Origin: a virus
Strand: one strand, 5' to 3'
IMG/VR virus record: IMGVR_UViG_3300036759_000025
Span: 64,001-112,874 of that record
DNA: 48,874 bases
The notes under the pieces are model-generated. The model was given only the letters and a program-made list of their open reading frames with translations, was not told where the DNA came from and searched no databases. The position numbers and the translations under genes were made by a program. How positions within the stretch are numbered: the first letter of the stretch is position 1; each line of letters starts with the position of its first letter. This document shows positions 8,765 to 40,671 of the stretch, piece after piece.

Positions 8765-8974
8765 CTAGTTGTTCTCCTTCGTCTCGATGATCTCCAGGTC
8801 GTCCGGATCGAACTCGTCCGGCGTGTACGGCGGGTACTCGTAGTTGTCGAACTTGACGGTGACCAGGTTGGCATCCTCGTCAATGGCAATGACGGTGCCA
8901 GGCCCGTCGAGTGCACCGTCCGTGGTCTGGACGCGGGTCTTGTTGGGAACGAAGTCCTCGATGTCGTTGCTCAT
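8765..8974 (-). CDS. Small acidic beta-barrel-like protein
   Basis: 69 residues from MSNDIEDFVPNKTRVQTTDG. The pattern GPGTVIAIDEDANLVTVKFD followed by an Asp/Glu-rich end resembles small SH3-like (KOW/Tudor-like) folds in which GxV..D and V.V..D strands alternate. Start overlaps the upstream stop by ATGA. Function unknown. Confidence 0.7.
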   Translation of the reverse strand: MSNDIEDFVPNKTRVQTTDGALDGPGTVIAIDEDANLVTVKFDNYEYPPYTPDEFDPDDLEIIETKENN

Positions 8975-28867: not shown

Positions 28868-28936
28868 TCGCAAGTGACGGCCAAGTGGCGACTGCCCACT
28901 CCCACCCAACCACGAGGAGAGAGACAGTCGCCGCTT

Positions 28937-36771: not shown

Positions 36772-37000
36772 TCTGCCGCATCTCGTGCCCCGCGCAGGTT
36801 CTATCAATCGGGCTGTCTATGACAGCTTGGAATACAGCGAACAGCACTCGGCCGAGGAGGTGGTGGATACGGTCAATTCGCGCTTCTTGCCGCAGGCCGT
36901 GCTGCACTCGCTGGCCAATCTCCAGGAAGCTGGGCTGGCAGAGAGTACACACCGGCATGGCATCACTTACTGGCGGCGGGCGGGAGGAGGACCCGGATGA
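36761..37000 (+). CDS. Small winged-helix-like regulator 1
   Basis: 79 residues: INRAVYDSLEYSEQHSAEEV, VNSRFLPQAVLHSLANLQEA recognition-helix-like stretch, GLAESTHRHGITYWRRA wing-like end. The layout matches the next gene product, so they are paralogues (helix-turn-helix plus wing). Probably transcription regulators of this region or of the array. Confidence 0.7.
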   Translation: MSSDLPHLVPRAGSINRAVYDSLEYSEQHSAEEVVDTVNSRFLPQAVLHSLANLQEAGLAESTHRHGITYWRRAGGGPG

Positions 37001-37275
37001 GAAAGCAGGATGTGCTACTCCAGAAGCCGTATCCGGGCAGTAACAGGCGCTTGGTGTATGACGCGCTCGATTACAACATTGGGCTCAGTACGCTCGACCT
37101 GGTGGCGGAACTGCCGCTGACTGTCAGTCAGATTTACAGGGCCTTGCGGCACCTGGAGGCGTATGGGCTCGTGGAGCGCACACGCAGCAGGGCGAACGGC
37201 CGCAGCCTGTGGTTTTTGGTCGGGGCTACGCCGGACAACGACCCCACGACTGTGCTGCCCGGAGAGCCGCTGTAG
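36997..37275 (+). CDS. Small winged-helix-like regulator 2
   Basis: 92 residues: NRRLVYDALDYNIGLSTLDL, then LTVSQIYRALRHLEAYGLVE (recognition helix) and RTRSRANGRSLWFLVG (wing). A compact winged-helix domain. It is the last gene before the repeat array and could control it. Confidence 0.75.
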   Translation: MRKQDVLLQKPYPGSNRRLVYDALDYNIGLSTLDLVAELPLTVSQIYRALRHLEAYGLVERTRSRANGRSLWFLVGATPDNDPTTVLPGEPL

Positions 37276-37348: not shown

Positions 37349-37373
37349 CTCAGCGACCCATGCCCAGCGTGGT

Positions 37374-39706
37374 CAGAGCCAACGCATTGAATCAAGCAAC
37401 ATGACAAGTGAGCGAGTCAAGGTGCCAGGAGAGCACCAAATCTGAAGAACGAGCCTGGAACATCGAGGATGCCATTCGGCAAGAGCGAGCCCACCCTGGC
37501 GAGAGTGCCAACCTGAGATAGCGAGCCTAGCTGCGAGCACGCCATACCATGCAAGCGAGTCACAGGCTGTTGAGGGGACCATCAACAACGAACGAGCCGC
37601 CGTCTCAGGAGCGCACCCTACAAGATGAGCGAGTCACCAACTCAGATGGCACCAAGTCTCACGAGCGAGCCGTTGGCTCATAGAGCACCAGTCACCGCGA
37701 GCGAGTCATCGTTTCCGAGAGTACCAACCAACCGAAGCGAGTCAATGTATTGGAGAGCACCAAAACATCCGATCGAGCCAATGTACTTGACAAGCTACAT
37801 GCCGAATCAGCGAGCCGAGGTGCTAGAGAGCGCCCAATCAAGAGAGCGAGCCTGGACGCGGAAGAGGGCCATTGTAAAGGAGCTAGCCATTAGAGCGGAG
37901 TAGCACCAGACTACCTTAGCGAGCCCTGGACTCCTAGCGCACCAAAGAACCGTAGTGAGCCAATAGATGTGAGGGTACCAAGTAGCGACAGCGAGCCTGC
38001 CACCCAGGAGAGCACCATCCTTCCTGATCGAGCCATATAGTGAGAGTGAGCCATCTCTGCGGAGAGCGCCCTAAACAGCAAGCGAGCCATGACCTATAAG
38101 GGTGCCATTTAGTGGAAGCGAGCCTGGCTCCCGAAGCGTGCCACCCTGCCTGATCGAGCCATACGGAAAGAACGCGAATAGCACCTTGACGGAAGAGCGA
38201 GTCATTCAATCAGAGCGCACCAGTCGGCCGGTGAACGAGCCAGAACTACAGGAGTAGTACCAGCCCCCGGTGAGCGAGCCATGTATTCCGGAGGGCACCG
38301 CAGTACGTGAGCGAGACAAGGACCAGCAGCGCACCAATTCACGACGATCGAGCCATTGTCGCGGAGAGCACCACACTCTCAAAGCGAACCAACCGGCTTG
38401 ATAGAACCTTCAACAACGAGTGAGAGCCTGAAGAAGCTAAGAGTACCAACCAGGTGGAGCGAGCCAATGGTCTTGAGGGAGCCTCTGACATTGGAGCGAG
38501 CCAACAACACCGGAGAGCACCTGTAGCTGGGAGCGAGCCACTGACAACGAGGGCACCGTTGAAGAAGAGCGTCAGTCACGGCGAGTGGACCAAGGACAAC
38601 CCGCTAGTCAAATTGCCCGAGAGCACCAAGCAGTAAGAACGAGTCAACAACCATGATTTGTACCATGGCGTCCTGAACGAGTCACAGCAAATTGATAGCA
38701 CCAACCCCGGAGAACGGAGCCAACTGTCCATAAGAGCACCACGTTCCACGAGCAAACCCCGTTCTCAGAGAGCGCCCAGGTCTTTGAGTGAGCCGCAGAG
38801 CCCAAGCGGTCCAGGTTGTGCAAGCGAGCCAGGGAACTGAAGAGCAACCAGCTTGACCAAGCGAACCTTCGGACTCGATAGCAACAGAGCTTACGAGTGA
38901 GCCAAACGTATCAAGCTGCACCACATAGCGCGAGCGAGCCGAGTTCACTTAGAGTACCCTCGAACTGAAGCGAGCCAACTACCAAGGAGGGTGCCAAGCA
39001 TCCAGAACGAGTCATGCAATCGGAGAGTACCATCAGAACTGAACGATCCAATGTTCCAGAGAGCACCCTGTGTTCGGAGTGAGCCCTAGACTCGGATAGC
39101 AACACTGCTGACAAGCGAGCCGTATATACGGAGGGCACCATAGCGTTTGAGCGAACCGCAAAGGGGAGAGCACCAGAAGGTATCAGTGAGCCAGATCCGT
39201 TGAGAGCACCAGGCATGAGCAGCGAGCCATGCAAGATGTGAGCACCACTGCGTGTAGGAGCGAGACACGATTTCAAAGAGCACCAAAGAAGCCGATCGAG
39301 CCAAGCTAGCCCAGAGCACCTGTCTTACGGGAGCGAGCCTAACATCTTGATTTGCACCATCAAGGAGTAGCGAGCCATCAGTCGAGAGAGAACCTACGCT
39401 TCGGAGAGCGAGCCCAAGGACGTGATAGCAACTTAGATGTCTTAGCGAGCCATTCTTCCCAAGAACACCAAAGAAGGAAGAGCGAGACATCGCTCTGAGA
39501 GGACCAAGAGACGCGATCGAACAGCCATGCTAATCGAGCGTGCCAGCTAAGCAGAGCGAACCTCACAGCGAGAGCGCACCGTACCTTGCGAGTGAGTCAT
39601 GTTGAAGCAGAGTACCAGTCGAGTTGAACGAACCGATGCCTGGATAGCACCATGTCTTAGGAGTGAATCATGAAGTACAAGTGCACCACTGTCTACACGA
39701 ATGCCA
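37374..39706 (+). repeat. TIGR-type array: about 64 units of ~36 bp with two alternating repeats
   Basis: Two repeat types alternate every 18 bases: type 1 GAGCGAGCCA (variants AGCGAGTCA, ATCGAGCCA, AACGAGTCA) and type 2 GAGAGCACCA (variants GAGAGTACCA, GAGGGCACCA, GATAGCACCA). Type 1 copies start, for example, at 37629, 37665, 37701, 37737, 37773, a regular 36-base step, and type 2 copies lie halfway (37683, 37719, 37755). About 8 variable bases separate them, so each unit has two different spacers. Both repeats end in CCA. By hand I count 63-65 type-1 copies. There is one extra half-unit near 38046-38064, an enlarged gap at 38162-38178, and degenerate ends (37374, 39697). It matches TIGR arrays, known to be cut into 36-nt guide RNAs with two spacers. 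It is not a CRISPR: repeats are too short and spacers too small. Confidence 0.9.
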
Positions 39707-39720
39707 ACTAAGGAGACAAA

Positions 39721-40671
39721 TTGAATCGCAGCACTACTCAGATCGAGGAGCTTGCGCGCCTCACCAGCGACATCCGCAGTGCCACCCGCACCCTGGAGCG
39801 GCGGGAGGCGCGCTATCTGGTGGACACCTACTACCAGCTACAGGACTACCGGATCTCGTCTGACAACCAGATCCGCAGCATGGCGAAGGATGCCGAGCCG
39901 CACCTGACGCTCGACTTCTTCGCCCACCAGATGCGTACCCTGGAGAACCAGGTGCGCTCGGTGCTCAACACCTGGACCGATACCGAGGAACTGGGTATCT
40001 GGGCTAAGTCGATAACTGGCATCGGGCCTGTCATCGCGGCCGGACTGCTGGCCCACATCGACATCGAGAAGGCTCCCACGGTCGGCCACATCTGGCGCTA
40101 CGCCGGATTCGACCCCACCGTCGAGTGGGGCAAGGGCGAAAAGCGGCCCTGGAACGCCAGCCTCAAGGTCGTCTGCTGGAAGGCGGGCGAGAGCTTCGTC
40201 AAGGTGTCTGGCAACAAGAACGACATCTACGGCAAGATCTACCTCCAGCGCAAGGACTTCGAGATCCAGCGCAACGATGCCGTGAAGGAGATCTCGCGCA
40301 ACGCCATCGAGGTCGTCGGTCACCAGGGGACCAATGACGACGGCAGCTACTTGATCATGGTTGACAAGGAGCTTGTCTCGGTCTACGAGATCGACGGTCG
40401 CTTCTACTACGACGGCAATGCCAAGCACGCCTACAGCACGCTCAAGCGCAAGAAGATCGGCAAGGACACCGACGCCTACAAGAGCTACAGCATCGGCAAG
40501 CTGCCGCCTGCGCACATCCACGCACGGGCCAAGCGCTACGCCGTCAAGCTGTTCCTGGCCCACTTCCACGAGGTCGGCTACAAGCTCCACTACGGCACCG
40601 AGCCGCCCGCGCCCTACCCGATCGCCATCCTTGGCCATGGGCACCGGATTCCGGCTCCCAACGCCGCGTAG
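39721..40671 (+). CDS. tas: Tas-like protein (Nop / IS110-transposase-C-like fold), nuclease-less
   Basis: 316 residues from a TTG with AAGGAGAC upstream, 15 bases after the last degenerate repeat. Residues 1-90 are long helices with coiled-coil pattern (LARLTSDIRSATRTLERREA), like the coiled-coil part of Nop proteins. Residues 96-135 (KSITGIGPVIAAGLLAHIDI, then TVGHIWRYAGFDP) are the helix-hairpin-helix of the IS110-type Transposase_20/Nop family; the following NASLKVVCWKAGESF corresponds to the conserved helix after it. Residues 258-310 (GKLPPAHIHARAKRYAVKLF, then YGTEPPAPYPIAILGHGHRI) form the conserved C-terminus of the phage branch. No HNH, RuvC or DEDD residues are visible, so it should bind guide RNA and DNA without cutting. 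Adjacent to the array, it fits the Tas component of a TIGR-Tas system. Confidence 0.85.
   Translation: MNRSTTQIEELARLTSDIRSATRTLERREARYLVDTYYQLQDYRISSDNQIRSMAKDAEPHLTLDFFAHQMRTLENQVRSVLNTWTDTEELGIWAKSITGIGPVIAAGLLAHIDIEKAPTVGHIWRYAGFDPTVEWGKGEKRPWNASLKVVCWKAGESFVKVSGNKNDIYGKIYLQRKDFEIQRNDAVKEISRNAIEVVGHQGTNDDGSYLIMVDKELVSVYEIDGRFYYDGNAKHAYSTLKRKKIGKDTDAYKSYSIGKLPPAHIHARAKRYAVKLFLAHFHEVGYKLHYGTEPPAPYPIAILGHGHRIPAPNAA

What the first reader, a model, noticed from the sequence alone, without database searches (positions are those of the whole stretch)
37374..40671. A TIGR-Tas locus in a phage: 64-unit two-repeat array plus Nop/IS110-like protein
Seen: about 2.3 kb of DNA repeating every 36 bases, with two alternating 10-base repeats and two variable ~8-base spacers per unit. 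It is followed after 15 bases by a 316-residue protein with coiled-coil plus helix-hairpin-helix (GIGPVIAAGLLAHI) architecture. Known: TIGR arrays are processed into 36-nt guide RNAs with two spacers that act with Nop-domain Tas proteins, related to box C/D snoRNPs and IS110 transposases, and occur in phages. The 36-base period, dual spacers and adjacent protein agree on all points. Inference: an RNA-guided DNA-binding module, here with an unusually long array.
Basis: partly seen in the sequence, partly recalled or inferred. Interest (0 to 1): 0.97.

Follow-up and report, generated by a model that had tools for sequence, protein, structure and literature searches.

The report
Phage TIGR-TasA locus, very long array
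An uncultured tailed phage carries a TIGR-Tas system, a recently described kind of RNA-guided DNA-binding system, with about 64 guide units (more than in any of the 69 relatives compared), and its relatives offer clues to what such systems target and how their guide arrays change.

Summary
About 64 units (edge 10 nt, spacer 8, loop 10, spacer 8; period 36) fill 37372-39706 (+). A ribosome-binding site and a 316-aa nuclease-less Tas protein (39721-40671) follow. Its predicted structure matches solved TasH and TasR first, IS110 transposases second. All 85 other TasA loci retrieved carry such an array on the same strand; this one is the longest of 70 counted (median 19).

Covariation joins position 8 of one edge repeat to position 3 of the NEXT edge, not to the same repeat. 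That is the closing helix of a 36-nt guide RNA, so even degenerate units look maintained. No targets were found in the phage's own record or close relatives.

Two leads came from relatives. One guide of a prophage TasA in an Acidobacteriaceae chromosome matches 16/16, in the published target geometry, an excisionase-like gene of another prophage in that chromosome (0.04 hits expected by chance over six guides). Related arrays change by internal unit gain or loss and single-spacer replacement, not at one end. New member of a known kind; TasA's function remains open.

The parts
36997..37275 (+). 92-aa winged-helix (MarR-like) protein gene just upstream of the array; possible regulator, conserved upstream of the array in L001 only
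   Evidence: Pfam MarR_2 1.3e-4, below its cut-off; PHROGs transcriptional regulator 5e-4; 44% identical homologue in L001
37333..37349 (+). Conserved promoter-like element CTTCTTGCGCTATGATC just before the array
   Evidence: Conserved in L001 at the same place; a second copy (up to 3 mismatches) on the - strand near 28876 in the same virus; not a canonical sigma-70 site. Function inferred.
37372..37381 (+). 5' truncated/degenerate first edge repeat (..GAGCCA)
   Evidence: Sequence; other arrays also start with truncated edges, e.g. ATTTGAGCCA, CCTTGAGCCA
37382..39696 (+). TIGR dual-repeat array, about 64 units: edge GAGCGAGCCA, spacer A, loop GAGAGCACCA, spacer B
   Evidence: covariation
38026..38061 (+). 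Half-unit irregularity: two edge-type repeats in a row
39697..39706 (+). Degenerate last edge repeat (ACGAATGCCA)
   Evidence: Sequence
39710..39715 (+). Ribosome-binding site AAGGAG, 5 bases before the TTG start; no terminator-like site between array and tasA, so the array may be the 5' leader of the tasA mRNA
   Evidence: Sequence; no terminator-like site there
39721..40671 (+). tasA: 316-aa Nop/IS110-type RNA-binding protein without nuclease domain
   Evidence: no PF01548 match in the virus record
40285..40413 (+). Codons of a ~43-residue beta-rich insertion (about residues 189-231), found only here and in L001 among 70 aligned TasA proteins
   Evidence: (secondary structure)

Best explanation
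This is a TIGR-TasA system on a tailed phage. The array is transcribed on the + strand, probably together with tasA. It is cut within each edge repeat into about 64 different 36-nt tigRNAs, each closed by base pairs between its two half-edges. A dimer of the nuclease-less TasA holds one tigRNA and binds double-stranded DNA where spacer B and the reverse complement of spacer A lie side by side. It unwinds and sharply bends that site without cutting it. The likely use is to block transcription or replication at many sites in rival genetic elements (other phages or prophages in the same host) rather than in the phage itself. Shown here: array, protein family and fold, RNA-level covariation, and absence of detectable self-targets. 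Inferred from published relatives: processing, dimer, DNA binding, bend. Inferred with weak direct support: silencing of rival elements.
For: Array statistics and control. Protein family and fold. Every one of 85 other retrieved TasA loci has the same kind of array on the same strand. Covariation inside the tigRNA: in the window 46 of 54 edge pairs across one unit are Watson-Crick, against 33.9 when shuffled (p<=2e-4), while the same-edge pair shows none (35 vs 34.6); over all arrays 1231/1357 vs 1049, same-edge control p=0.95; loop 3x8 pair also covaries. Phage identity: tape measure, portal, terminase, DnaB-like helicase. No self-targets in the 112,874-base record. Rival-element lead: in Acidobacteriaceae KBS 96 one of six guides of a prophage TIGR array has an exact 16/16, gap-0 match in the same chromosome. 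It lies at codons 8-13 of an excisionase/regulator-like gene, beside an integrase and repressor, with a capsid gene in the same region.
Against: No target was found for any window guide in the phage's own record, L001's virus or portal relatives, or in about 1 Mb of DNA around relatives; two IMG/VR pattern scans were not informative. The KBS 96 match belongs to a relative, not to this phage, has about a 4% genome-wide chance for six guides, and was not repeated in Propionivibrio (two patterns covering three of six guides). The published study saw no phage protection with TasR in E. coli (PMC12045711). The window phage's host is unknown. My confidence refers to membership and the RNA-guided DNA-binding mechanism; the rival-element role alone I put at about 0.4.
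Confidence: 0.93

Rival explanations
1. A degenerate IS110-family remnant beside an unrelated tandem repeat: the protein is a transposase fragment and the repeat has no link to it.
For: Pfam and PHROGs names are 'Transposase_20' and 'transposase'.
Against: No DEDD catalytic domain match in the virus record. Fold and profile searches rank Tas proteins far above IS110. The protein-array link recurs in all 85 other loci. Intra-unit covariation shows the array acts as a guide RNA.
Confidence: 0.02
2. The array regulates the phage's own genes (RNA-guided autoregulation or timing) instead of targeting other elements.
For: The paper leaves regulatory roles open for TasA (PMC12045711); array and tasA may share one transcript, and a winged-helix gene lies upstream.
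Against: No guide has a match above the permuted-pair level in the 112,874-base record in any of four geometries; no self-match in the all-against-all search, which included three other full records.
Confidence: 0.08
3. TasA and its array help phage DNA integration, packaging or architecture by sharply bending DNA at many sites (helper to an integrase).
For: Suggested in the paper from the roughly 180-degree bend in the TasR complex (PMC12045711).
Against: No self-matches; no integrase among the proteins examined (not an exhaustive annotation).
Confidence: 0.05
4. A decaying array: many of the degenerate units are no longer used.
For: Repeats are more degenerate here than in most relatives; in L001 the corresponding array is only about half as long and shares few units.
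Against: Compensatory changes in the window's own units keep the closing pair (46/54 vs 33.9 expected), and tasA is intact.
Confidence: 0.15

Closest known systems
TIGR-TasA systems (Faure et al. 2025, PMC12045711; e.g. Flavonifractor plautii FpTIGR)
   Same: Nop/IS110-type protein without nuclease; dual 10-nt repeats alternating with short spacers; 36-nt unit; truncated first edge; closing pairs between neighbouring edges; box C motif CCA; phage-borne
   Different: About 64 units (5-15 most often in the paper); box D core AG instead of the UG described for TasR; 43-residue beta-rich insertion shared only with L001; no terminator between array and tasA
TIGR-TasH / TasR (PDB 9w04, 21kl, 9mty)
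   Same: Best sequence and fold matches; shared Nop/coiled-coil core
   Different: No HNH or RuvC nuclease domain at the N-terminus
IS110-family transposases (IS621, ISCro4)
   Same: Related RNA-binding fold (weaker matches)
   Different: No DEDD domain; dual-repeat array instead of a bridge RNA
Microcystis phage Mvi-JY20 (PP438412.1) unannotated TIGR locus
   Same: Large phage (108 kb) with TasA-like gene followed by a 36-nt dual-repeat array; its terminase is the only phage-collection match to this virus's terminase
   Different: About 9 units, repeats ATGCGAGCC/ACGAAACCC, array downstream of the gene and followed by a terminator-like hairpin

Membership tests
TIGR-Tas (TasA type) | Nop-type RNA-binding protein related to Tas/IS110 | tested here: met
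TIGR-Tas (TasA type) | Adjacent array of two alternating 8-12-nt repeats with short spacers, about 36-nt unit | tested here: met
   10+8+10+8 = 36
TIGR-Tas (TasA type) | Array begins with a truncated edge repeat | tested here: met
   37372-37381 GTCAGAGCCA; same in relatives
TIGR-Tas (TasA type) | Array ends with a truncated edge followed by a rho-independent terminator (described as typical, not obligatory) | tested here: not met
   The array ends in a degenerate edge and runs directly into the tasA ribosome-binding site; L003 and Mvi-JY20, with the array downstream of the gene, have a hairpin there
TIGR-Tas (TasA type) | Pairing/covariation between neighbouring edge repeats of one tigRNA | tested here: met
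TIGR-Tas (TasA type) | No nuclease domain (TasA) | tested here: met
   No nuclease family match; the model begins with the long helices of the coiled-coil region
TIGR-Tas (TasA type) | Array RNA processed into 36-nt tigRNAs bound by Tas | not testable with these tools
   Needs RNA sequencing
TIGR-Tas (TasA type) | tigRNA-directed dual-strand DNA binding | not testable with these tools
   Needs biochemistry; no target found for this array
IS110 transposon | N-terminal DEDD (RuvC-like) transposase domain PF01548 | tested here: not met
   (no match in the virus record; controls rang)
CRISPR array | One repeat of about 25-36 nt with spacers of similar size | tested here: not met
   Two 10-nt repeats, 8-nt spacers; no known RNA family match in the region
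Box C/D snoRNP | L7Ae and fibrillarin partners | not tested
   Neighbouring proteins had no such family matches, but no dedicated search was made

The most novel reading that the evidence does not exclude
TasA arrays are RNA-guided repressors for rivalry between phages and prophages: each guide silences, without cutting, a control gene (such as a lysogeny-switch gene) of a competitor in the same cell, and arrays keep up by replacing single spacers inside units.
Probability: 0.3. Interest if true: 0.85.

Novelty: new member of a known kind. Interest (0 to 1): 0.58.

Why it matters
TIGR systems were described only in 2025; their natural targets, the role of nuclease-less TasA and the way arrays grow were left open (PMC12045711). 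This locus gives about 64 natural guides in one phage, with compensatory changes showing selection on the RNA. The relatives collected here give a testable candidate for a natural target (a regulator gene of a co-resident prophage) and evidence that arrays change internally and by single spacers, unlike CRISPR arrays.

Tried and rejected
Self-targets of the window array in four geometries: none above permuted controls. Targets in L001's virus, portal relatives and ~1 Mb around relatives: no clear excess; the few exact hits in the published geometry include homologous duplicates. Two IMG/VR pattern scans for units shared with L001 gave 11 and over 120 hits, about what chance would give in a collection of that size (my estimate), so they say nothing. 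Target search for two patterns (three guides) in Propionivibrio: none. TasA homologues on plasmids: none. A host for the phage: not settled; weak portal and DnaB-like helicase similarity to phages of Gordonia and related actinobacteria, and a terminase match to a Microcystis phage. Rfam: no family. PADLOC: no defence family for tasA.

Full report
WHAT IS THERE. Positions 37372-39706 (+ strand) hold a dual-repeat array: autocorrelation peaks at 18, 36 and 54 bases, and segmentation gives 63 edge and 63 loop repeats, about 64 units with the truncated first and degenerate last edge. Edge consensus GAGCGAGCCA, loop GAGAGCACCA, spacers mostly 8 nt. The detection score is 1013, against at most 17 in shuffled array sequence and at most 23 in 684 kb of unrelated viral DNA on both strands. 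No long ORF crosses it. After AAGGAG at 39710-39715 a TTG start opens a 316-aa protein (39721-40671).

WHERE IT IS. The window is part of a 112,874-base virus record. It encodes a 2501-aa tape-measure protein, portal, terminase, DnaB-like helicase and a DNA-polymerase-like protein: a tailed phage. The host is not known; similarities point weakly to phages of Gordonia and related actinobacteria and to Microcystis phage Mvi-JY20.

THE PROTEIN. Pfam Transposase_20 (23 bits; cut-off 21.3); PHROG 4285 at 9.4e-53; PDB sequence matches TasH and TasR at 6.9e-11 and 7.9e-10; the profile of 70 relatives hits TasR at 1.2e-21, TasH at 1.6e-13 and IS621 at 5.1e-4. The AlphaFold2 model (pLDDT 88.5, pTM 0.84) finds 11 Tas chains before any IS110 transposase. 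There is no nuclease domain match and no DEDD domain match, so it is TasA. A 43-residue beta-rich insertion occurs only here and in L001, the nearest relative (83% identical).

RELATIVES. Scans of IMG/VR and GTDB genomes gave 85 other distinct loci; all carry such an array on the same strand. Some of these are near-identical copies from related samples. Among 70 with distinct proteins, the number of edge repeats has median 19; the window has the most (60 above threshold), then 51, 48 and 47. The TIGR-Tas paper states 5 to 15 units most often (PMC12045711).

THE ARRAY ACTS AS GUIDE RNA. In the published structure the tigRNA's two half-edges pair with each other (PMC12045711). Here, position 8 of one edge and position 3 of the next edge are Watson-Crick in 46 of 54 window units against 33.9 when shuffled (p<=2e-4), while the same two positions within one edge show nothing (35 vs 34.6). 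Across all arrays, shuffled within each array: 1231/1357 vs 1049, same-edge control p=0.95; the loop pair 3x8 also covaries. This gives the register of the mature RNA from sequence alone and shows that the window's degenerate units are maintained.

TARGETS. With the published geometry (spacer B next to the reverse complement of spacer A, gap 0-2; orientation derived from the paper's C-5 cleavage rule and 8-nt 3' overhangs) the window guides have no match above control in their own record or in close relatives, and all guides together show no clear excess in about 1 Mb around relatives. For the one prophage TasA in a near-complete chromosome (Acidobacteriaceae KBS 96, six guides) one guide matches exactly, gap 0, at 6,329,962 (the other five none). 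The site lies at codons 8-13 of an 86-aa excisionase/regulator-like gene, beside an integrase and XRE repressor, with a capsid gene in the same region: another prophage, about 6.2 Mb in scaffold coordinates from the TIGR locus. Expected hits over six guides and three gaps: 0.042. This is suggestive, not proof; the position in a prophage control gene was noticed afterwards. Two patterns (three guides) in Propionivibrio gave nothing.

ARRAY EVOLUTION. Aligned related arrays differ by unit gains and losses scattered inside the array, not at one end. Among related arrays 23 unit pairs keep one spacer exactly while the other differs at four or more positions, against 0.45 expected. The window and L001 share a few whole units and a few single spacers. 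Spacers are less GC-rich than their genomes (window 0.51 vs 0.61; over 76 loci r=0.70), which would fit AT-richer control regions as targets but also other causes.

VERDICT. A new, very long member of a known kind; the value lies in the array's length, the covariation, and the two leads on targets and array change.

Noticed in passing
L240:4963-4978 (G009:C1:6329962-6329977), guide from L088: Exact 16/16, gap-0 dual-spacer match of a prophage TIGR guide in an excisionase/regulator-like gene of another prophage in the same Acidobacteriaceae KBS 96 chromosome.
   Followed up: partly
L241 (PP438412.1 21367-22430): Microcystis phage Mvi-JY20 carries an unannotated TIGR locus: TasA-like XAI95461.1 followed by about 9 dual-repeat units and a terminator-like hairpin.
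   Followed up: partly
L242 (MH271305.1, gp42): Gordonia phage Morrissey gp42 is TasA-like and flanked by palindromic repeats that look like a stem-loop TIGR array.
   Followed up: no
L014-L018, L031-L084 arrays: Related TIGR arrays differ by internal unit gain/loss and single-spacer replacement: 23 half-unit matches against 0.45 expected. Puzzling if both spacers must match one site.
   Followed up: partly
76 loci: Spacer GC is lower than the GC of the locus (mean 0.48 vs 0.55) yet correlated with it (r=0.70).
   Followed up: no
window 40285-40413 (residues 189-231); L003 Tas: Lineage-specific insertions in TasA: 43 residues in window and L001, about 55 residues elsewhere in L003.
   Followed up: partly
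window 37336 (+) and about 28876 (-): Promoter-like CTTGCG[CA]TATGATC occurs before the array and once more on the other strand.
   Followed up: no
window 8834-8917: tRNA-Ala (anticodon ggc), the only tRNA in the virus record.
   Followed up: no
L001:2895-3091: In L001 the array is split in two by a stretch without repeats, possibly a small ORF (ATG after GAGGAGG), before the second array and tasA.
   Followed up: no
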